NCBI GenBank assembly: GCA_016200125.1
Contig: JACQFK010000281.1
Location: forward strand, 1 to 10,761
Direction: 5' to 3'
Origin: Planctomycetota bacterium
GTDB lineage: Bacteria; Planctomycetota; MHYJ01; JACPRB01
Length of the DNA stretch: 10,761 bases
The position numbers and the translations under genes were made by a program. The notes under the pieces are model-generated. The model was given only the letters and a program-made list of their open reading frames with translations. It was not told where the DNA came from and made no database searches. Of this stretch, positions 1-10,470 are shown one piece after another (within the stretch, counting starts at the first letter, position 1; each line of letters opens with the position of its first letter).

Positions 1-909
1 CTCGCGGCCTCCGCCTCCTCCGACGCCCACACGCGCTTCATGGGCATCGTGGGGATGCTCGTCTATTCGACCGTCATGGCCGCCCCTTTCGTCATCATGG
101 GCATCTTCCCCTCGCTGATCACCACGGTCCGGAAGAGCAGCGGCGACTGGCTCCACACGGTGAAGGTGACGATGGGCTTCGTCGAACTGGCCGTCGCGAT
201 GTTCTATCTGTCCAAGGCGGACACCGTCGGTGGATGGGGCGTGCTCACCCGCTGGGTCATGATCTCCTTCTGGGTGGCCGCGCTGGGCTTCACCATCCTC
301 TACTTGCTCCGGGTCTTCCAGCTGAAGGGCGACGAGCCGGATCCCGCGCCGGCGGAGGACGCTGCGGGCCCTCCGGTCCGCCGCCAGATCGGCATCGCGC
401 GCATGCTGGTGGCGCTCCTGTTCGGGGTGGTCGCCGTTTCCTTCGCCAGCGGCTACGACGGCCGGGCGCTCGGCTGGCTCGACGGCGTCCTGCCGCCCGG
501 GGAGGTCAAGGAAGGGGACATCGCCAGCTATCCCGCCGCGCTGGCGGAGGCGAAGAAGAGCGGCAAGCCCATCTTCCTGGAATTCACCGGCGTGACCTGC
601 ACCAACTGCCAGGTCATGAAGGGCACCGTGCTGGCGAGCGCGGCGGTCCGCGAGCTGGCCTCGCGCTTCGTCTTCGCCGAGCTCTACACGGACCGCAAGT
701 CGGACCCGAAGCACCGCGAGGGGGACGAGGAGAACCGCAAGCTCCTGGTGGAGAAGTTCCAGGGCTACGCGCTCCCGTTCTACGTGACGCTCGGCCCCGA
801 CGGCGTCGAGCGCTCGCGGATCCTGGGCAAGGTGTCCGAAGCCGAGTTCATCGAGTTCCTCAGGCTGGGGCTTTCTCCGCCGCCGCAGACCAACGGCGGG
901 GGACGCTGA
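1..909 (+). CDS. dsbD: DsbD-type thiol:disulfide interchange protein, 3' part (5' end outside window)
   Basis: The reading frame is open from base 1, so this is the C-terminal 302 residues of a longer gene. Seen: about four hydrophobic segments (fragment residues ~16-38, 53-73, 82-105, 133-150), with a GDWLHTVKVTMGFVELA stretch typical of the DsbD/CcdA transmembrane domain. A thioredoxin-like domain follows (from ~170) with a CTNC redox pair at residues 200 and 203 (bases 598-609) and a cis-Pro-like ALPFYV. Family knowledge: DsbD takes electrons from cytoplasmic thioredoxin, moves them through paired membrane cysteines, and delivers them to periplasmic partners through its C-terminal domain. 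The membrane cysteines and any N-terminal domain lie upstream of the window. The stop codon overlaps the Shine-Dalgarno of the thioredoxin gene, which implies one operon. Family call is firm; the exact subtype (DsbD, ScsB or a cytochrome c biogenesis variant) is not settled. Confidence 0.9.
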   Translation, partial: LAASASSDAHTRFMGIVGMLVYSTVMAAPFVIMGIFPSLITTVRKSSGDWLHTVKVTMGFVELAVAMFYLSKADTVGGWGVLTRWVMISFWVAALGFTILYLLRVFQLKGDEPDPAPAEDAAGPPVRRQIGIARMLVALLFGVVAVSFASGYDGRALGWLDGVLPPGEVKEGDIASYPAALAEAKKSGKPIFLEFTGVTCTNCQVMKGTVLASAAVRELASRFVFAELYTDRKSDPKHREGDEENRKLLVEKFQGYALPFYVTLGPDGVERSRILGKVSEAEFIEFLRLGLSPPPQTNGGGR

Positions 910-919
910 GGAGGAACCC

Positions 920-1246
920 ATGTCCCATCTTCCCGCGGTGAACGACCAGACCTTCGACGCCGAGGTCCTCCAGGCCCCCGCGGCCCTGGTCGACTTCTGG
1001 GCGGAGTGGTGAGGGGGCTGCAGGATCCTCGCTCCCGTGGTGGAGCAGGTGGCGGCGGAACTGGGATCGCAGGTGAAGATCGTGGGGGCGGACGTGGACG
1101 AGACCGGCGAGGCCGCGTCGAACGTGGGCATCAGCTCGATCCCGGCGCTCGTGTTTTTCAAGGCGGGGAAGGAAGTCCACCGGATCGTCGGCCACGTCAA
1201 GAAGGAGAAGCTCGTCGACGAGATCCGGAAGCACCTGCTTTCGTGA
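920..1246 (+). CDS. trxA: Thioredoxin with in-frame UGA in the active site; probable selenoprotein (WUGGC)
   Basis: Read through one TGA at 1010-1012, this frame encodes a 108-residue thioredoxin, the usual family length. ATG 920 is preceded by AGGAGGAA (909-916). Residues 23-30 read LVDFWAEW, then UGA (codon 31), then GGC, so the UGA takes the place of the first Cys of WCGPC and the resolving Cys is residue 34. Downstream landmarks fit: Pro39, buried Asp25, cis-Pro75 in SSIPAL, Phe79-Phe80, and a C-terminal helix rich in Lys/Glu. The gene's own terminal stop is also TGA (1244-1246), as are the stops of several neighbours, so UGA is not generally reassigned. Candidate SECIS hairpins follow the UGA. 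Inference: UGA is decoded as selenocysteine, giving a low-pKa redox enzyme that may feed electrons to the DsbD encoded 11 bp upstream. Alternatives: a TGC-to-TGA sequencing error, or a mutated gene. A conventional caller would start at GTG 1037 and miss residues 1-39. Confidence 0.82.
1013..1049 (+). promoter_or_regulatory. Candidate bacterial SECIS element after UGA-1010
   Basis: Two overlapping hairpins can form just after the UGA. Hairpin A: GGGGGC (1013-1018) pairs with GCTCCC (1031-1036), one G-U pair, 12-nt loop. Hairpin B: CCT(C)GCTCC (1027-1035) pairs with GGAGCAGG (1042-1049), 8 bp with one bulged C, and a 6-nt loop CGTGGT (1036-1041). Hairpin B fits the general bacterial SECIS model, in which the apical loop lies roughly 16-37 nt after the UGA and has a G among its first two bases; here the gap is 23 nt and the second loop base is G. 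The two hairpins share bases and exclude one another. The pairing was done by eye without energy calculation. Role, if real: recruitment of SelB with charged tRNA-Sec. Confidence 0.55.
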
Positions 1247-1321: not shown

Positions 1322-1858
1322 ATGAAGACGGCGGTGGCGACCCTGGCGCTGCTCCTGGGCGCGGCGGGACTGGCGTCGGCGCAGGACGACCGGGAGCGGA
1401 AGGCCGACGAGCTCAAGCGCGACTTCGAGCGCGCGATGAAGGGGCTGCAGCAGAAGTTCGAGTCGGAACGGGACCGGCTGGAGAAGGAGTTCCGGGCCGC
1501 TCGGGAGCGCCTGCTGGAGAAGAAGGGCGAGAAGCGCGAGGAGCCGAAGCCGCGCAGCACCGAGGAGCTGCTCCAGCGCGTGCTCGACCGGCTGGACCAC
1601 CTGGAGAAGCGGCTCGACCAGGAGCTGCCGCGCTTCGATTTCAAGAACCTGCCCTTCGACTTCAAGTCGATGCCCAAGTTCCGGGACTTCGAGGATTTCC
1701 GGGAGTTCATCCCCAAGTGGCGCGAGTTCGCCCCCAAGTTCAAGGACGAGGAGTTCCGCTTCGAGTTCAGGAAGAAGGGCGACGACAAGGACGACGGGAA
1801 GAAGCCAGAGAAGAAGGGCGAGAAGCCCGAAAAGAAGGGCGAGAAGAAGCAGTTCTGA
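1322..1858 (+). CDS. Secreted coiled-coil, Phe- and Lys-rich protein of unknown function
   Basis: 178 residues from ATG 1322, with GGAGG at 1310-1314. Residues 1-20 form a signal peptide ending in ASA before Gln21, so the product is exported to the periplasm or beyond. Residues ~22-70 and ~78-102 are highly charged heptad-like helices (many Arg, Glu, Lys), probably coiled coil. Residues ~103-150 hold a regular aromatic pattern in which Phe or Trp recurs every two to four residues between charged residues (for example KFRDFEDFREF and KWREFAPKF). The tail (151-178) is a Lys/Glu/Gly repeat of PEKKGEK type. I recognise no family. Position behind dsbD and trx allows co-transcription, but the 75-bp gap and lack of redox residues (no Cys at all) mean a shared role is not shown. 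Most likely a structural, membrane- or nucleic-acid-binding periplasmic protein; function unknown. Confidence 0.8.
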   Translation: MKTAVATLALLLGAAGLASAQDDRERKADELKRDFERAMKGLQQKFESERDRLEKEFRAARERLLEKKGEKREEPKPRSTEELLQRVLDRLDHLEKRLDQELPRFDFKNLPFDFKSMPKFRDFEDFREFIPKWREFAPKFKDEEFRFEFRKKGDDKDDGKKPEKKGEKPEKKGEKKQF

Positions 1859-3259: not shown

Positions 3260-3856
3260 ATGAAGCTCAAGCACGCGGCGGTCCTCTTGGCGGCGTCATT
3301 CCTCGCGGCCTGCGGAGGCGGGAAGCAGGAGGGCGTCGTCACGTTCATCGGCTTCACGCCCGTCACGGTCAACGACAAGGACATCCGCACGGTGCAGACC
3401 AACTGCCCCGGCTGCGGCGATCCCATCGCGGTCGACACCGCGCGCTGCCCGAACAAGAAGTGCAAGACCGACATGACCTGGCCGAAGGACTACCGCTGCC
3501 CGTCCTGCCAGGGCTCCGGCGTCTGCGCCGCCTGCACCGCGATGGAGCAGACCAAGGGCGAGTGCTACAACTGCCGCGGCACGGGCGTCCTGATCTACGC
3601 CGGCCAGTCGCCGAACTGCCCCAACTGCAAGGGCTCCAAGCAGTGCCCGATCTGCAAGGGGACGCGCAAGTGCGACCAGTGCAACGGCGAGAAGGTCATC
3701 TCCAAGGAGATCGTCAAGGCCAAGGCCGCGAAGTTCGTCAGCAAGGACGGCGACCTGCCGGACTCCGACCCCCGCCCGCCCGACACGAAGAAGCCGGACG
3801 CGGAGAAGAAGGAAGAGCCCAAGAAGGAAGGCGGCTCGACCGAAGAGAAGAAGTAG
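3260..3856 (+). CDS. Lipoprotein with DnaJ-like multiple CxxC zinc-binding region
   Basis: 198 residues from ATG 3260, chosen over upstream in-frame starts because of the GAGGAGA ribosome site and the signal sequence. Residues 1-18 form a lipoprotein signal ending LAAC, with lipidated Cys18. Residues 49-141 contain sixteen Cys in eight pairs: 49/52, 63/68 (CX4C), 80/83, 89/92, 102/105, 120/123, 129/132 and 138/141. Several pairs are followed by Gly-rich turns (CQGSG, CRGTG, CKGSK, CKGTR, CNGEK), like the CxxCxGxG repeats of the DnaJ zinc domain. The C-terminus (~167-198) is a Pro/Lys/Glu-rich tail. Inference: an exported, membrane-anchored zinc protein, perhaps a chaperone-like or scaffold factor. 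No J domain is present. Zinc fingers outside the cytoplasm are unusual. Specific function unknown. Confidence 0.85.
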   Translation: MKLKHAAVLLAASFLAACGGGKQEGVVTFIGFTPVTVNDKDIRTVQTNCPGCGDPIAVDTARCPNKKCKTDMTWPKDYRCPSCQGSGVCAACTAMEQTKGECYNCRGTGVLIYAGQSPNCPNCKGSKQCPICKGTRKCDQCNGEKVISKEIVKAKAAKFVSKDGDLPDSDPRPPDTKKPDAEKKEEPKKEGGSTEEKK

Positions 3857-4058: not shown

Positions 4059-7000
4059 TCACTTCCTCAGGCGGATCGACCGGAAATTCGCCTCGCCCGT
4101 CGTGGTGAGCCCCAGGTCGCGGTCGCCGGGCAGCGCCGCGGCCACGAGCAGCAGGGGACGTTCGGCGGCGTAGCAGGCGATGTCGCCGCCCTCCGCCACG
4201 AAGGCGAGGTCGATCCACTGGCCCGCCGCGAGCTTCCGGCCGAGGGAGGCCGACGCGCTGCGCTTCTCCTCGAAGCCGTCGAACTCGTAGAGCGTCAGCT
4301 CGCCCGTGTCGCGGACGACCAGGCGGCGGTAGCGCCCGTCCTTCGTCGAGGCGTCGAACTTGAACCCGCTGGCGAAGGAGCTGAAGGTGCCGGAGACGGA
4401 GAGCTCCACGGCCGCGCCGCTGGCGCCCCGTGTCTTCACGGCGGAGAGCTCGATCGACTGGTTCGGCTTCAGGCGGAGCCCGCGGCTCGACCTCGTTTCG
4501 TCGTCGACGGGCGCCGGCGTGCCCTGCGCCTTGCCCTCCCAGGTCCAGTCGTCGTTGAGCAGGCTGCCCGCGGGGCTCCAGGTCCCGGTCTGGCGCAGGG
4601 CGTTGGCGTAGGGGGCGAAGACGTCCTCCTCGCGGTAGAGGCCCGGGTAGCCCGTGCGGAGCGCGCGGGCCGCCTGCTTGAGCCGCTGCGGGTCCCGGGC
4701 CCGTTCGTACTGGAGGACCTCCGCGACGAGGATCGCCGCCATCGCGCGTCCGATCTGTTCCTTGAGCAGCGGATCGTGCGCCCAGGCGGCCTGGATCGCC
4801 GCGAGCGGCTGCTTGGCCGCCTCGTAGTTCTTCTTGTCGAGCTGCGCCTTCGAGGCGGCAATGCGGTCCCGCACCTCCTGGTAGCCGCGCTCGCGGAAGC
4901 CCTCGAGGCGGAATCCCAGGCCCGAGAGGCCGATCTCCTCCGCTCGTCGGAACCAGCGGGCCGCCTGGGCCCAGCGCTCGGGGACGGCCGAATGCAGGTA
5001 GGCCGCCCCGGCCGCGCGGCAGAGGAGGTCGTTGCCCTCGTACAGCTTCTCAACCGTCACGCCTTCGAAGACGGCGGCGAGCGCGACGAGGTCCTCCGGG
5101 TGGAGGTCGCGCGTGGTGAAGGACTTCTCGGCGCCTCCCTTGGGCTGGAAGCCGAAACCCTTGGCGTTGACGATGACCCGGCCGCTGGAGCCGTAGGTCG
5201 CGAGCCGGATCTCCGTCCCCTTCTGGAAGAGCGAGTAGAGGCCCTGGCTCGCCTCGGTGACGAGCATCTCGACGTCGAGCGCATCCTGCAGGTCGGAGAG
5301 CATCCGGTAGGGAAGGCTGTCCTGGGCCTTGAGGAAGGCGGAGGCGAGGGCCGAACGCACCTGGAGCAGCGCCGTGTCCTTGAAGGCGTTGTCGGCCGTC
5401 GCCCGGAAGAGGACGTCGTAGTTCAGCGCAGGCACGCGGGAGCAGGACCGCTCCTCCTCGGCCTGGTCCTTCAGGAACTTCGAGACCCGGAAGTACGCGG
5501 CGGCGGTTTCGCGCCTCGCCATCGACTCCTCGAAGGAGGAGTGGACGAGCGCGAACTCGTCCGAAACCTTGCGCAGGACGGCGTCGTTGAACTCGCGCTC
5601 CAGGCGGGGGAGCTCGGCCTTCAGCCGCTCCAGGCGCGTGCGGCGCGTGCCCTCGGCCACCGGGAGCAGCTGGTCCAGGAGGGGCGCGGCCTCCTTGAAC
5701 TTGCCCTCCTTGAGCCGGGCGTCGAGTTTCTTCTCGTCCGACAGGTATTTCGTCTCGGCCTCGCCGAGCGCGATCGCCCGCTCCTCGCGGAGCCGCTTGT
5801 CGATCGGCGTGAGATCGAGCAGCGGCTGCGGGTAGTCCCGGAGCGCCTTGACGCGGCGGTAGGGGTCCGGCTCCTTGAGCGCCTTGTCGAGCTCCTCGCC
5901 CGCCCGCTTCTCGACGTAGTCGTAGAAGGCCTTCTTCCCCTGGCGGGCCTTCTCGATGTAGTCCGCCGAGGTCGTGGACTTGATGAAGTCGTCGTACGCG
6001 GTGAACACGTCCGGATAGGCCGCGAAATTGTCCTTGTTCTTCTTCTCGAACTGGACGACCTCGAGCAGCTTGTCGCTGAGGGGCGGCTTGACCGCCGCGG
6101 GCGGGACCGGATTCTGGGCCGTCTTGTCGGGCGGAGTCCTGGCTCCGCCGCCCGAGAAGGCGGCGATGAGGAGGATCAGCAGCAGGAGGAGCCCGGTCCC
6201 GGCGCCCGCGCCGGCCAGGATCTGCTGCTTCCTCGTGAGGCGGTCGAGTCCGAAGGGAAGGGTGATCGGGACGCGGACCTGGATCTCCTTGCCCTTGAGA
6301 AAGGCCTCCAGGTCGTTCGCGGCGGCGCCGGCGCTCTGGTAGCGGTCGGCCGGCTTCTTCGCCATCATCTTGAGGACGATGTCGTTGAGCGGCCTGGGGA
6401 TGGCCGGCTTATGCTTCATCGGCGGCACGGGCGGCTCGTGGATGTGCTTGTTGAGCACGGCGAGCGCGGTGGCGCCGACGAAGGGTCGCTTGCCCGTGAG
6501 CAGGTAATAGAGGGTCACGCCGGCGGCGTAGACGTCGCAGAGGGGGGTCGCCTTCTGCCCGCGCGCCTGCTCGGGCGCGAGGTAGTAGGGCGTGCCGACG
6601 ACCATGCCGTCCTTGGTGATCTGGAGCGCGGTCTCGGTCTCGATCGCCAGGCCGAAGTCGAGCAGCTTGGGCTCGTCGCCCTTGGTGATCAGGACGTTGT
6701 CGGGCTTCACGTCGCGGTGGACCACGCCCTCCTCGTGGGCGTGCTGCAGGCCGCGGAGCATGCCGGCGGCGATCTTCGCGGCGTCCCGGGGCTCCATCGC
6801 GCCCAGGTTCTCGACGACCGTGGAGAGCGACTCGCCGTCGACGTACTGCATGACGATGAAGTGGCGCCCCTCGGCGTAGCCCACGTCGTGGATCTGGACG
6901 ATGTTGGGATGCTCCATCCTGCCCGCGGTGGTCGCCTCGCGCATGAAGCGGGCGACGTACTCGGGGTCGCGGCCCATCTCGGGCGGGAGGATCTTGACGG

Positions 7001-7130
7001 CGACCTTGCGGCCGAGGCCGAAGTGCTCGGCGAGCCAGACGGAGCCCATGCCGCCCGTGCCGAGCTTGGCTAGAATTCGGCACTTCTCGAAGGTCTTGCC
7101 GACCAGATGGTCTTCGTGCTTAGGCGCCAT
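4059..7130 (-). CDS. Membrane-anchored PknB-type Ser/Thr kinase with large extracytoplasmic region
   Basis: 1023 residues. The kinase domain (~14-278) is complete: GTGGMG glycine loop (24-29), Lys46 in VAVK, Glu65, HRDVKPDN (138-145) with catalytic Asp140, DFG at 158-160, and GTPYYLAPEQ (179-188). A single membrane helix lies at ~304-325. The outer region (~330-855) is helical and charged, with repeated Ala/Leu/Arg/Glu segments suggesting TPR-like or other helical repeats. The last ~166 residues (LNDDWTWEG onward) look like a beta-sandwich of the LamG or DUF1080-like kind, with alternating beta strands and a FRSIRLRK end. Inference: a receptor kinase that senses a cell-surface ligand, possibly a glycan, and phosphorylates cytoplasmic proteins. 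It overlaps the upstream kinase gene by 11 bp and has no clear Shine-Dalgarno, so translation is probably coupled. Kinase identity is certain; the sensor ligand is unknown. Confidence 0.93.
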   Translation of the reverse strand: MAPKHEDHLVGKTFEKCRILAKLGTGGMGSVWLAEHFGLGRKVAVKILPPEMGRDPEYVARFMREATTAGRMEHPNIVQIHDVGYAEGRHFIVMQYVDGESLSTVVENLGAMEPRDAAKIAAGMLRGLQHAHEEGVVHRDVKPDNVLITKGDEPKLLDFGLAIETETALQITKDGMVVGTPYYLAPEQARGQKATPLCDVYAAGVTLYYLLTGKRPFVGATALAVLNKHIHEPPVPPMKHKPAIPRPLNDIVLKMMAKKPADRYQSAGAAANDLEAFLKGKEIQVRVPITLPFGLDRLTRKQQILAGAGAGTGLLLLLILLIAAFSGGGARTPPDKTAQNPVPPAAVKPPLSDKLLEVVQFEKKNKDNFAAYPDVFTAYDDFIKSTTSADYIEKARQGKKAFYDYVEKRAGEELDKALKEPDPYRRVKALRDYPQPLLDLTPIDKRLREERAIALGEAETKYLSDEKKLDARLKEGKFKEAAPLLDQLLPVAEGTRRTRLERLKAELPRLEREFNDAVLRKVSDEFALVHSSFEESMARRETAAAYFRVSKFLKDQAEEERSCSRVPALNYDVLFRATADNAFKDTALLQVRSALASAFLKAQDSLPYRMLSDLQDALDVEMLVTEASQGLYSLFQKGTEIRLATYGSSGRVIVNAKGFGFQPKGGAEKSFTTRDLHPEDLVALAAVFEGVTVEKLYEGNDLLCRAAGAAYLHSAVPERWAQAARWFRRAEEIGLSGLGFRLEGFRERGYQEVRDRIAASKAQLDKKNYEAAKQPLAAIQAAWAHDPLLKEQIGRAMAAILVAEVLQYERARDPQRLKQAARALRTGYPGLYREEDVFAPYANALRQTGTWSPAGSLLNDDWTWEGKAQGTPAPVDDETRSSRGLRLKPNQSIELSAVKTRGASGAAVELSVSGTFSSFASGFKFDASTKDGRYRRLVVRDTGELTLYEFDGFEEKRSASASLGRKLAAGQWIDLAFVAEGGDIACYAAERPLLLVAAALPGDRDLGLTTTGEANFRSIRLRK

Positions 7131-8334
7131 GGGCGTTCACGGGGGTATCGAGGTAGTTGCGGCGCAGCTCCTCCGCGAACTCGAGGGCGGAGGCCTGGCG
7201 CCGGGTCTTGTCCCGCTCCAGCGCGCGGAGGCAGATCGCCTCGAGCGCGCGCGGCGTCCGGGGATTCAGGACCGAGGGGGCGGTCGGGGCGCCATTGAGG
7301 ATCGCGAAGTAGACCTGCACGACGGAGTTGCCGGGAAAGGGGACCTTCCCGGTGAGCGCCTCGTAGAGCATCACCCCCAGGGCGTAGATGTCGCTCCGCG
7401 CGTCGGTGCCGGGCACGTCGCCCATCACCTGCTCGGGGGACATGTAGTAGGGGGTGCCGATCTTGCCGCCGCCCTGGGTGGAGGCCTTCTCCAGGTGGTC
7501 CATCTTGGCCAGTCCGAAGTCGCTCACGTGGGGCCGCCCGGCGGCGTCGAGGATGATGTTCGCGGGCTTCAGGTCCCGGTGGATGATCCCCTGCTGGTGC
7601 GCGTGGTGGACCGCATGGGCGACCTGCTCCAGCACCTCGACGAACTGCCGGAGCGTGAGCCGGTTCGTCGCCAGGGCGCGGTCCAGCGCGACCCCTTCGA
7701 CGACGGCCATGGCGATGTAGTAGGTCCCGTCGTGCTCGCCGGAGTCCAGGACGGGGACGATGTTCGGATGGGAGAGGCGTCCCGCGGCCCGGGCCTCCTG
7801 CTGGAAGCGCCGGAGATAGTTCGGATTGGGAGTGTCGGACTCCTTGAGCACCTTGAGCGCGACGAGGGCGCCCGTCTCCAGGTGCCGCGCCCGGTGGACG
7901 ACGCTCATCGAGCCGCGGCCGATCTCGTCCAGCAGTTCGTAGGGGCCGACCCGGCGGGCGCCCGAGGGGCTTCGCGGCCGCTCGGGCTCGGCGACGCGCC
8001 GGACCACGAGCACCTTCTGGCACTTGCGGCAGACGAACTTGGTGCCCTCCGCGTAGCCCTGGATCAGGTAGTAGGTGTCGCAGCCGGAGCAGGGGAGCAT
8101 GAAGCGGTCGTGGCGGAGCAGCCCGCCGGACTCCGCGGGGGCGCTGACCTCGGCCATGTGGATGCGCTGGATGTCGCGGATGATCTGCACCTGGGAGGGG
8201 TTGAGGAAGCCGCGGTTGACGAGCACCTCGCTGAGGGTGGCCCCGTTCGAGTCGCTCATCGCCGAATCGAGCTGTCCTTGCGTGACGAAGCCCTCCTCGA
8301 CGGCGATCCGGCCGAACAGGCTCTCTTCCTGCAC
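7120..8334 (-). CDS. Soluble Ser/Thr kinase with N-terminal helical repeat module and zinc ribbon
   Basis: 404 residues from a GTG codon. Order: a pair of related helical motifs (LFGRIAVEEGFVTQGQL, residues 6-22, and LSEVLVNRGFLNPSQV, 34-49) resembling the small N-terminal module seen on many regulatory and secretion ATPases; a zinc ribbon with Cys82, Cys85, Cys102 and Cys105; then a kinase domain from ~131. The kinase has GRGSMS (139-144), Lys161 in VALK, Glu180, HRDLKPAN (252-259) with Asp254, DFG 272-274 and GTPYYMSPEQ (293-302). There is no membrane helix, unlike its partner. It likely acts in the cytoplasm, with the ribbon and helical module binding a partner or ligand. It is the first gene of a two-kinase operon and may phosphorylate, or be phosphorylated by, the second kinase. 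Glycine loop GRGSMS lacks the third glycine of GxGxxG, which is tolerated in this family. Confidence 0.92.
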   Translation of the reverse strand: MQEESLFGRIAVEEGFVTQGQLDSAMSDSNGATLSEVLVNRGFLNPSQVQIIRDIQRIHMAEVSAPAESGGLLRHDRFMLPCSGCDTYYLIQGYAEGTKFVCRKCQKVLVVRRVAEPERPRSPSGARRVGPYELLDEIGRGSMSVVHRARHLETGALVALKVLKESDTPNPNYLRRFQQEARAAGRLSHPNIVPVLDSGEHDGTYYIAMAVVEGVALDRALATNRLTLRQFVEVLEQVAHAVHHAHQQGIIHRDLKPANIILDAAGRPHVSDFGLAKMDHLEKASTQGGGKIGTPYYMSPEQVMGDVPGTDARSDIYALGVMLYEALTGKVPFPGNSVVQVYFAILNGAPTAPSVLNPRTPRALEAICLRALERDKTRRQASALEFAEELRRNYLDTPVNAHGA

Positions 8335-8340
8335 CGGAGA

Positions 8341-8346
8341 ATTATA
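8341..8346 (-). promoter_or_regulatory. -10 box (TATAAT) for the kinase operon; leaderless start
   Basis: On the minus strand a perfect TATAAT (8346 to 8341) lies 6 nt before the GTG start at 8334, so the predicted transcript starts at or next to that codon. No Shine-Dalgarno is present. The -35 region at the right distance is weak (TTCCCC around 8369-8364). Confidence 0.6.
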
Positions 8347-8401
8347 ACGAGCGCAGCGAAGGAGGGGAACGCCGATTCATGCGCGAATCAGGACGGAGGA
8401 A

Positions 8402-8528
8402 GAACCAGCACGCCCTACCCAGTGCACCGGCAGAAGAATCTCCCCCCCTCCCTCCCGGGGGAGGGCAAGCGTCTCCCACAGGGGGACAGGAGGGGGGTGG
8501 TTATCCGCCTGTACGGGGTGCTGGTTCA
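8402..8528. repeat. Nested inverted-repeat element between diguanylate cyclase and kinase genes
   Basis: This ~127-bp segment folds on several levels. Its outer ends are a perfect 10-bp inverted repeat, GAACCAGCAC (8402-8411) and GTGCTGGTTC (8518-8527), extended inward through single unpaired bases by CCC/GGG and TAC/GTA. Inside, CCCCCCTCC (8443-8451) pairs with GGAGGGGGG (8489-8497), enclosing hairpin CTCC/GGAG (8452-8463) and a 7-bp hairpin GTCTCCC/GGGGGAC (8471-8487, loop ACA, one G-U pair). The right outer arm overlaps the TGA of the diguanylate cyclase. It could be a REP- or MITE-like element, a terminator for the minus-strand gene (only a weak ATTCTTCT tract follows), or a structured RNA. 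No coding sequence is seen in 8335-8525. Confidence 0.55.
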
Positions 8529-10421
8529 GGTATTGCCAGGGGTCTTGACGGGTGCCAGAACGACCCGGTTTTTCCCGGCTCGCTTCGCAGCATAAAGGGC
8601 TTCGTCGGCCTTGAGAAGCAGCTCGCGCGCGTCGTTCGCGTCGTCCGGGTAGACGGCGCCGCCGATGGAGAAGGCGAGCGAGATGGCGTGGTCGGCGTAG
8701 CGGAACTCCTCCTTGCGCACGGCGTCGAGGATGCGCTCGCCGGCGCGCTGCACCCCCTCGCGGCTGGTCTCGGGGAGGATGATCTCGAACTCGTCGCCGC
8801 CGTAGCGGGCCACGACGGGCGCGGAGTCGCGGTCGTCGCCCCGGCGGGCCACCAGGTCGTCGGTCCGCATCGTCGTGGCGAGCACGCGCGCGACCTTCTT
8901 GAGGATCTCGTTGCCGGCGTCGTGGCCGTAGGTGTCGTTGATCTTCTTGAAGTCGTCCACGTCCATCATCAGCACGCCGCAGGGGCGGCCGTGGCGGCGG
9001 GCGCGGGCGACCTCGCTGTCGAGCCGCTTCTCGAAATGGCCGTGGTTGAAGAGGTTGGTCAGCGCGTCGTGGATCGCCTTGATGTGGAGCAGGGCGTTGT
9101 CGATCGCCACCGCCGCGTGGTCGGTGAGGATCTCGGCGATCTCGATCTCGCGCGGGCCGAAGGCGCCCACGACGTTGGAGTTGTCGAGGTAGACGGCGCC
9201 GATCAGCCGCATCTTGACCCGCAGCGGCACGCAGAGGATCGACAGCAGGCTCTGGTCCTGCACGCTGTCGATGATCCGCAGCGTCGGGTCCTGCCGCGCG
9301 TCCTCGGCGATCACCCGCTTGCCGGAGTCGCGCACCAGCTTGAGCACGGTGCGGGAGACGCCCATCTCGAGGCGCTTGAGCTCGTGCTTCTGGCGGTCGC
9401 GGGAGAGTTCGATCTTGAACTTCTCGCCCTCGAACACCACGATCGTGCCGCGCTGCGCGTTGCAGAACTCGATCGCGGTGTCGAGGATCATCGTGATCAG
9501 CTTGCGCAGGTTGAGCTCGGTGTTGATCTTCTTGATCACCTCGAGCACCGGCTTCAGGGTGCTGAGGCCCATGTCGGTGGTGGACTTCTCCTTGGGGACG
9601 ACGGTAGTGGTGATCTGGACCGGCACCTTCCACATGCCGCTGTTCGTCATCGAGTCGACGCCCATCGCGTTCACCACGGCGGGGTTCTTGAGGAAGCGCT
9701 CGCGGCCGTCCTCCGAGAGCTCCGCCGAGATGCGGTTGATCGTCGTGATGGCCGCCTGGCGGTAGTCCGTGCCCGCCTTCTCCTTGCCCGACTTGAGGCA
9801 GGCGTTGGCCATGGCGGCCTTGATGAGCCAGAGCGTTTCCGCGTCCGGCTGCTTCGCAAGCTCCTGCTCGGCCGCGTTGAGGAGCTCGATCGCCCCGTTC
9901 ATGTCGCCCGTCCGCTCCGCGCAGATCGCCTTGACGAGCCCGGCGCGAGCCTTGAGCCAGGGGGCGTTCAGCGCCACGGCCGAGGAGTAGGCGTCCTCCG
10001 CGAAGACGCGGGCCTCCGCGTAGTCCTCCTGCGTGATGGAGAGCTCGGCGGAGACCAGGTGGGCGAAGGCGGTGATCTCCTGCCCCGCGTGGCGGTTCAA
10101 GGCCTCGAGGGCCCGGTCGATGAGCGTGTCCGCCTGGTCGAACTCCGCCAGGCGCAGCTGGGCGAGGGCTCCGACGGCGAGCGCGTAGCCGGCCGAGAGG
10201 GAGTCCTTCACCCGGGCCGAGAGCTCGTAGGCCTCCTGGGCGAAGCTCTTGGCCTTCGAGGGGCTGTTCAGGAGGCACTGGATGTGGGCGGCGGCCGCCA
10301 GCGCCTGGGCGGCCTGGACCTGCTTGCCCTCCTTCAGGTAGTCGATGGAGAGCCGCTTGGCCAGCTTGAGGGCGCTCTCGTAGTGGCCGTCGTGAACCTG
10401 CTTGTAGACGTCGGGGATCAA
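8526..10421 (-). CDS. Diguanylate cyclase: TPR-like, GAF and GGDEF domains
   Basis: 631 residues from TTG 10421, chosen because a -10 box ends 8 nt before it. The frame opens 13 codons earlier (TTG 10460), and other in-frame candidates are GTG 10439 and TTG 10430. Residues ~5-235 are Ala-rich paired helices of TPR type (for example GHYESALKLAK, EDYAEARVFAEDA). A GAF domain covers ~305-445 (RGTIVVFEGEKF to AVAIDNALL). The GGDEF domain (~452-620) has DALTNLFN, VLMMDVDDFKKINDTYGHD with metal-binding Asp487, and an intact YGGDEF (540-545), so it should make cyclic di-GMP from two GTP. Odd: 13 extra residues (527-539) sit between the DLVAR segment, which contains a possible inhibitory RTDD, and YGGDEF, partly repeating VARxGDD. 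No membrane helix, so a cytoplasmic sensor. Single gene between two intergenic regions. Confidence 0.9.
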   Translation of the reverse strand: MIPDVYKQVHDGHYESALKLAKRLSIDYLKEGKQVQAAQALAAAAHIQCLLNSPSKAKSFAQEAYELSARVKDSLSAGYALAVGALAQLRLAEFDQADTLIDRALEALNRHAGQEITAFAHLVSAELSITQEDYAEARVFAEDAYSSAVALNAPWLKARAGLVKAICAERTGDMNGAIELLNAAEQELAKQPDAETLWLIKAAMANACLKSGKEKAGTDYRQAAITTINRISAELSEDGRERFLKNPAVVNAMGVDSMTNSGMWKVPVQITTTVVPKEKSTTDMGLSTLKPVLEVIKKINTELNLRKLITMILDTAIEFCNAQRGTIVVFEGEKFKIELSRDRQKHELKRLEMGVSRTVLKLVRDSGKRVIAEDARQDPTLRIIDSVQDQSLLSILCVPLRVKMRLIGAVYLDNSNVVGAFGPREIEIAEILTDHAAVAIDNALLHIKAIHDALTNLFNHGHFEKRLDSEVARARRHGRPCGVLMMDVDDFKKINDTYGHDAGNEILKKVARVLATTMRTDDLVARRGDDRDSAPVVARYGGDEFEIILPETSREGVQRAGERILDAVRKEEFRYADHAISLAFSIGGAVYPDDANDARELLLKADEALYAAKRAGKNRVVLAPVKTPGNT

Positions 10422-10429
10422 GCCGTGCA

Positions 10430-10470
10430 ATCGTAGCACAGGGGCCCGACCCCGGGGCAAAAAAATATTT
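10430..10470 (-). promoter_or_regulatory. Probable promoter of the diguanylate cyclase gene (-10 plus AT-rich UP-like tract)
   Basis: On the minus strand TACGAT (10435 to 10430) lies 8 nt before the TTG start at 10421, again with no Shine-Dalgarno. The -35 region is GC-rich and unconvincing. An A/T run (10459-10470) in otherwise very GC-rich DNA falls about 38-49 bases upstream of the predicted start site, where an UP element would sit. Partly inferred from the matching arrangement at two other genes. Confidence 0.42.

What the first reader, a model, noticed from the sequence alone, without database searches (positions are those of the whole stretch)
920..1246. Selenocysteine thioredoxin: UGA replaces the first active-site Cys (WUGGC)
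The frame with one TGA at 1010-1012 gives a full-length, otherwise well-conserved thioredoxin. The TGA falls exactly on the nucleophilic Cys codon, the resolving Cys34 is kept, and other genes here use TGA as a normal stop. A random nonsense mutation would rarely hit that codon. The usual Pro of CGPC is Gly (GGG GGC codons), which supplies the 5' arm of a hairpin, as if coding were bent to RNA structure. Gene callers would truncate this gene to start at 1037.
Basis: partly seen in the sequence, partly recalled or inferred. Interest (0 to 1): 0.93.

Follow-up and report, generated by a model that had tools for sequence, protein, structure and literature searches.

The report
Selenocysteine thioredoxin in a planctomycete
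This gene makes a small redox protein, thioredoxin, in which a stop codon in the active site is most likely read as the rare selenium amino acid selenocysteine; the kind is already known, but this gene's lineage and its RNA signal add a well-supported new branch.

Summary
ORF 920-1246 is a full-length thioredoxin with one internal TGA (1010-1012) on the nucleophilic Cys codon (WUGGC). It is not a lone nonsense mutation: thioredoxin-like genes with TGA at that codon turned up in 13 other Planctomycetota genomes. In the window and the 10 closest of these, found by protein similarity, a hairpin CUCC-NGUNNU-GGAG lies at one fixed distance from the UGA; 0 of 41 Cys thioredoxins have it there. Two more genes were found by that pattern itself. 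A distant one (Mariniblastus, WUPPC) has another hairpin. The stem uses a GCT alanine codon, which the window uses for 6 of 389 alanines. Of the 12 genomes with the shared hairpin, 11 have SelB and the twelfth tRNA-Sec. No genome is held for the window, so its own Sec machinery is untested.

Loss of the Pro before the second Cys is instead common (Pro in 1 of 11 UGA genes, 41 of 41 Cys genes). In seven relatives the upstream DsbD-like gene also has UGA in its CxxC. Sec-thioredoxin is a published family: a new member of a known kind.

The parts
920..1246 (+). Selenocysteine thioredoxin gene (108 aa with U31; stop TGA 1244-1246)
   Evidence: UGA-bearing homologues
1010..1012 (+). In-frame UGA, predicted Sec codon, first position of the UxxC motif
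   Evidence: TGA at the same codon in 10 related genes, two more found by pattern and one in Mariniblastus
1019..1021 (+). TGC, resolving Cys34 (Cys also in the relatives)
   Evidence: the pattern required it
1031..1046 (+). Apical stem-loop of the predicted bacterial SECIS element: GCUCC-CGUGGU-GGAGC, loop 1036-1041, 23 nt between UGA and loop
   Evidence: Core present in 11 of 11 UGA genes found by protein similarity and 0 of 41 Cys genes, and once in the window; RNAalifold picks the helix on 13 genes, two of them found by the pattern itself; absent from the Mariniblastus gene
1031..1033 (+). GCT Ala38 codon, rare here (6 of 389 Ala codons; the only GCT among the 14 Ala codons of this ORF); its T makes the U-A pair of the stem
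909..914 (+). AGGAGG, likely ribosome binding site just upstream of ATG 920
   Evidence: Sequence read directly
1037..1246 (+). Truncated ORF that a gene caller would report (69 aa, GTG start)
   Evidence: same truncation in database proteins
1..909 (+). Upstream DsbD-like membrane protein with C-terminal thioredoxin-like domain (5' end outside the window); motif CTNC at 598-609, UxxC in seven relatives
1322..1858 (+). Neighbouring gene of unknown function, kept near the UGA-thioredoxin of G283 (44% identity over 163 aligned positions)

Best explanation
The gene encodes a thioredoxin of an uncultured Planctomycetota bacterium in which the UGA at 1010-1012 is translated as selenocysteine. A bacterial SECIS hairpin inside the coding sequence (apical stem-loop 1031-1046) would bind SelB carrying Sec-tRNA-Sec and deliver it to the UGA. 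The Sec31-Cys34 pair would then do thiol-disulfide exchange, perhaps passing electrons to the DsbD-like membrane protein encoded just upstream. Shown: the UGA position, its conservation, the shared hairpin and codon bias, Sec machinery in relatives. Inferred: Sec insertion in this organism, the electron partner, any catalytic benefit.
For: Homologues: in 392 Planctomycetota genomes the four best places (52-60% identity) and a fifth (46%) carry exactly one internal stop, a TGA; no other listed place does, though the list was cut. In the class of the closest genome 9 of 22 listed places carry one TGA. Eleven TGAs (window plus 10) all fall on the first Cys codon of CxxC, as does one in Mariniblastus. 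RNA: CTCC.GT..TGGAG at the same offset in 11 of 11 UGA and 0 of 41 Cys genes (p=1.7e-11, relatedness ignored); codon +7 ends in T in 11 of 11 vs 9 of 41; codon +8 is CCC in 10 of 11 vs 7 of 41. The pattern of UGA, Cys codon and hairpin gave 12 matches in 12 of 392 genomes, 0 for the reversed pattern; the two new ones are also thioredoxin-like with UxxC. The window meets the published bSECIS model: 6-nt loop, G then U at loop positions 2-3, spacing 23 nt, -18.1 kcal/mol for the extended fold (model from passages of PMC13188914). Machinery in the 12 genomes with the shared hairpin: SelB over cut-off in 11 (5 of 5; 6 of 7); tRNA-Sec(UCA) confirmed by ARAGORN in 8; of the five examined, SelD over cut-off in 5 and SelA in 4.
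Against: No genome is held for the window, so its Sec genes could not be looked for; the window holds no tRNA. No Rfam match at 900-1320. Folding energy near the UGA is no better than shuffles in five stretches (z -0.07 to 1.45). The published model is permissive: 15 of 41 Cys thioredoxin genes and the Cys site of the window's own DsbD-like gene meet it, one UGA gene (G247) fails it, and in two others (G004, G149) the lowest-energy structure that meets it is not the shared hairpin. Covariation is weak: four of five pairs never vary. The shared core is not universal: the Mariniblastus UGA gene lacks it, though it has another hairpin that fits the model. SelB is common in genomes where no UGA-thioredoxin was found (3 of 7; 26 of 40), so it is not diagnostic; tRNA-Sec likewise (7 of 14 such genomes at E<=1e-8). 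G149 has no SelB over cut-off; G247 and G126 no tRNA-Sec at E<=1e-8; G283's best hit is a tRNA-Ser. Sec machinery was not searched in G002 (Mariniblastus).
Confidence: 0.95

Rival explanations
1. Sequencing error or a recent nonsense mutation (pseudogene) in an ordinary Cys thioredoxin.
For: The window is one contig whose reads were not available.
Against: Other genomes have TGA at the same codon, the 38 best protein hits are all truncated, and hairpin and codon bias are shared. The full-length Cys hits listed reach at most 51-54% identity.
Confidence: 0.02
2. UGA is read as another residue (Trp, Cys, Gly) rather than Sec.
For: The reading of UGA was not measured; codon reassignment exists in other bacteria (recalled).
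Against: TGA ends six of nine annotated ORFs in the window, this one included. The internal TGA sits on the catalytic Cys codon with a specific hairpin after it, and relatives encode SelB and tRNA-Sec.
Confidence: 0.02
3. The real product is the short ORF from 1037, a half-thioredoxin without an active site.
For: Gene callers start there in many relatives.
Against: The part before the UGA is conserved in relatives with its own ATG (MSHLPAVNDQTFDAEVLQAPAALVDFWAEW in the window, MAHLPAVTDQNFQQEVLGAPAAVVDFWAEW in L012), it has a likely ribosome binding site, and the resolving Cys upstream of the short start is kept.
Confidence: 0.01

Closest known systems
Bacterial selenoprotein thioredoxin (Trx, PF00085, UxxC): in the tables of PMC13188914 and PMC9312934; listed for Geobacter, Anaeromyxobacter, Carboxydothermus and Treponema denticola in PMC1794560 (passages seen)
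   Same: Thioredoxin family, UGA at the first Cys of CxxC, second Cys kept.
   Different: This branch is in Planctomycetota, most members have lost the Pro before the second Cys, and they share one SECIS core. The published proteins were not fetched or aligned here, so these contrasts with them are untested.
Trx-like 1 (COG0526, UxxC) of the GOS marine selenoproteome (PMC2398784, passages seen)
   Same: Same motif and superfamily; 321 selenoprotein sequences in its table.
   Different: Not compared sequence by sequence here.
Sec-containing thiol:disulfide interchange protein (Trx-like 2, cd02953, UxxC, in PMC2398784)
   Same: The upstream gene in seven relatives: DsbD-like with UxxC in its C-terminal thioredoxin-like domain (domains checked in L012 and L014).
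   Different: In the window this gene has Cys (CTNC). Membership in cd02953 was not tested.
Escherichia coli fdhF bacterial SECIS (recalled)
   Same: Apical stem-loop about 20 nt after the UGA with G-U in the loop.
   Different: Sequence differs (recalled); no Rfam match in the window.

Membership tests
Selenoprotein thioredoxin (Trx, UxxC) | Thioredoxin domain over the whole ORF | tested here: met
   PF00085 E=1.3e-27; TIGR01068 above cut-off
Selenoprotein thioredoxin (Trx, UxxC) | In-frame UGA at the first Cys of CxxC, with Cys homologues | tested here: met
Selenoprotein thioredoxin (Trx, UxxC) | UGA conserved in homologues of other organisms | tested here: met
Selenoprotein thioredoxin (Trx, UxxC) | Bacterial SECIS element (loop 3-9 nt, stem 4-16 bp, G in first two loop positions, 16-37 nt from UGA, MFE <= -7.5) | tested here: met
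   with my own implementation, which is permissive (15 of 41 Cys controls also meet it); the specific core is 11 of 11 against 0 of 41
Selenoprotein thioredoxin (Trx, UxxC) | SelA, SelB, SelD and tRNA-Sec in the same genome | not testable with these tools
   No genome held for the window; found in relatives to the extent told
Selenoprotein thioredoxin (Trx, UxxC) | Selenium actually incorporated; Sec-dependent activity | not testable with these tools
   Needs an experiment

The most novel reading that the evidence does not exclude
In a Planctomycetota lineage a Sec thioredoxin and a DsbD-like membrane protein that also has UGA in its CxxC form a dedicated selenium electron relay encoded side by side, with the two sites swapping between Sec and Cys independently (the window: Cys in one, Sec in the other). 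Holding Sec goes with loss of the otherwise strict active-site Pro, and often of the Trp before it, perhaps to retune the redox potential.
Probability: 0.35. Interest if true: 0.6.

Novelty: new member of a known kind. Interest (0 to 1): 0.42.

Why it matters
It points to thioredoxins that databases hold as headless fragments, gives a short RNA signature that recovered two further UxxC genes, and offers Sec and Cys thioredoxins side by side in four genomes for asking what selenium changes in this active site.

Tried and rejected
Rfam on 900-1320 found nothing. Fold energy against shuffles was uninformative. The genome-contig scan gave eight loci at 26-48% identity; at first I took all for Cys proteins, but a late check showed that one, L002 (Mariniblastus), has TGA at the CxxC; in the other seven the aligned codon is TGC or TGT. 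It is the place G002:C6 that one search had listed with one TGA. I left it out of the 52 sites and of every statistic. The viral contigs protein scan gave two Cys thioredoxins. The hairpin pattern in viral contigs gave eight matches; read in the UGA frame I see no thioredoxin sequence on both sides of the motif, so I take them as chance; this was by eye. The window's lower helix (1017-1021 with 1052-1056) is not conserved: 53.8% of cells paired. A single origin of the UGA genes is neither shown nor rejected (three changes on a quick tree of 53 rows; one-clade test p-AU 0.61; the G126 and Mariniblastus genes were not in it). The codon and motif tests use best-hit loci, not a random sample, and ignore relatedness.

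Full report
Observation. The frame 920-1246 reads as a 108-residue thioredoxin with one internal TGA at residue 31. The Pfam model covers residues 6-103 at E=1.3e-27 and NCBIfam's thioredoxin model scores above its cut-off. The TGA lies on the first Cys codon of CxxC (WUGGC). TGA is also an ordinary stop here: six of the nine ORFs I annotated end with it. An AGGAGG (909-914) precedes the ATG at 920.

Is it chance? No. A protein search gave 222 hits, 120 listed. Of those, 61 are shorter than 80 aa, among them the 38 best; the first full-length hit ranks 39th, at 51% identity with CGPC. Of the 61, 34 start at the residue coded at 1037 and 15 four residues earlier, as gene callers do with a selenoprotein; these fragments do not themselves show the codon. 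DNA does. In 392 Planctomycetota genomes the four best places and one lower one have exactly one internal stop, a TGA; the other listed places have none, and the list was cut. The 23 genomes in the class of the closest genome added five. Over 52 aligned sites the codon is TGA in 11, TGC in 35 and TGT in 6. A further UGA-thioredoxin, more distant, is in a named Mariniblastus MAG (L002, WUPPC), and two more came from the pattern below: 13 other genomes in all. The phylum of the window is inferred from these relatives and from its purine nucleoside phosphorylase: three of 120 listed hits name an organism, each Planctomycetota.

The RNA element. Folding alone says little. Comparison says more. In the window and the ten related UGA genes found by protein similarity, CUCC-NGUNNU-GGAG lies at the same offset, with 23 nt between the UGA and the loop: 11 of 11, against 0 of 41 Cys genes. 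On 13 genes (two of them found by the pattern, so matching by construction) the stem has five pairs, four invariant, and RNAalifold picks this helix by itself. The published model (passages of PMC13188914) is met by the window, but it is permissive: 10 of 11 UGA and 15 of 41 Cys genes meet it, and in two of the ten (G004, G149) by another hairpin. Part of the core follows from protein sequence; synonymous positions show it too: among genes with Ala or Ser at codon +7, the codon ends in T in 11 of 11 UGA and 7 of 30 Cys genes. In the window GCT is 6 of 389 Ala codons, and the only one of 14 in this ORF is the one in the stem. These tests treat related genes as independent. Covariation is weak because the stem hardly varies. 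The Mariniblastus gene lacks this core and has another hairpin that fits the model (loop CGGG, 22 nt).

Prediction test. A scan of 392 Planctomycetota genomes for UGA, Cys codon and hairpin at fixed spacing matched once in each of 12 genomes; the reversed pattern matched none. Ten were the known genes. The other two (G049, G126) read as thioredoxin-like proteins with UxxC. In viral contigs the same pattern gave eight matches that look like chance.

Machinery. No genome is held for the window. Of the 12 genomes with the shared hairpin, SelB is over the cut-off in 11; the exception, G149, has a tRNA-Sec. ARAGORN confirms tRNA-Sec(UCA) in 8 of 12; G283's best hit is a tRNA-Ser, G292 has a 53-bit hit not checked further, and G247 and G126 have none at E<=1e-8. 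In the five examined, SelD is over cut-off in 5 and SelA in 4, the fifth (G283) having a contig-end fragment. SelB is also in 29 of 47 genomes where I found no UGA-thioredoxin: the trait is widespread in the phylum and does not by itself point to this gene.

Active site. The conserved hairpin does not include codons 32-33, and the longer helix that touches codon 33 is broken in many relatives (first pair unpaired in 12 of 13, second in 8 of 13). Yet loss of Pro before the second Cys is common: Pro in 1 of 11 UGA genes against 41 of 41 Cys genes, and Trp before the first position in 4 of 11 against 40 of 41. Of the three genes outside that count, two (GUPTC, GUMSC) lack both, and Mariniblastus (WUPPC) keeps both, which goes against a strict rule; with them Pro is in 2 of 14. 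A chemical reason, such as retuning redox potential, is inference.

Neighbourhood. The gene upstream (1-909) is the C-terminal part of a DsbD-like protein with CTNC. Beside the UGA-thioredoxin, seven relatives have TGA at the first Cys of the same motif: L012, L014, L015, L036 and L092, and L091 and L093. In L013, L042, L096, L117 and L118 the search of the stretch held found no clear copy, L042 holding little upstream DNA. In four of the genomes (G149, G236, G292, G118) an ordinary CGPC thioredoxin lies next to the UGA one. The L012 protein has DsbD_TM and Thioredoxin_7 domains and is 45% identical to the window's. The gene at 1322-1858 has a 44% identical counterpart near the UGA-thioredoxin of G283. 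An electron path between the two proteins follows from the known role of DsbD (recalled), not from a test.

What is known. Sec thioredoxin (PF00085, UxxC) is in current catalogues (PMC13188914 and PMC9312934, passages), was listed in 2006 for Geobacter, Anaeromyxobacter, Carboxydothermus and Treponema denticola (PMC1794560, passages), and UxxC Trx-like proteins are abundant in marine metagenomes (PMC2398784, passages). Selenoproteins in Planctomycetes were reported in PMC4807772 (passages; its table S9 was not seen). The listings of my searches showed no title on Sec thioredoxin in this phylum; they cover open-licence papers only and I saw the top rows. The finding is a well-supported new member of a known kind.

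Noticed in passing
L036, L091, L092, L093 (genomes G149, G292, G236, G118): A UGA-thioredoxin (GUHAC) sits next to an ordinary Cys thioredoxin (CGPC), a natural Sec/Cys pair.
   Followed up: partly
L012, L014, L015, L036, L091, L092, L093: The DsbD-like gene beside the UGA-thioredoxin has its own in-frame TGA at the first Cys of its C-terminal CxxC; Cys in the window.
   Followed up: partly
L002:5025 (Mariniblastus sp., JALZWN010000006.1) = L137: A more distant UGA-thioredoxin (WUPPC) with a different hairpin after the UGA; keeps Pro and Trp. Its genome was not searched for Sec machinery.
   Followed up: partly
L079-L083, L085-L087 and G203:C165: selD itself carries an internal TGA in 9 of 10 places over the cut-off; the G308 copy also shows a TAG.
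   Followed up: no
L118 (G126): Thioredoxin-like protein with KGUMSC found only by the hairpin pattern; it looks like a different subfamily using the same core.
   Followed up: partly
window 3260-3856: Protein rich in CxxC motifs with no Pfam or NCBIfam match.
   Followed up: no
window 4059-10460, minus strand: Two Ser/Thr kinase genes and a GAF-GGDEF gene.
   Followed up: no
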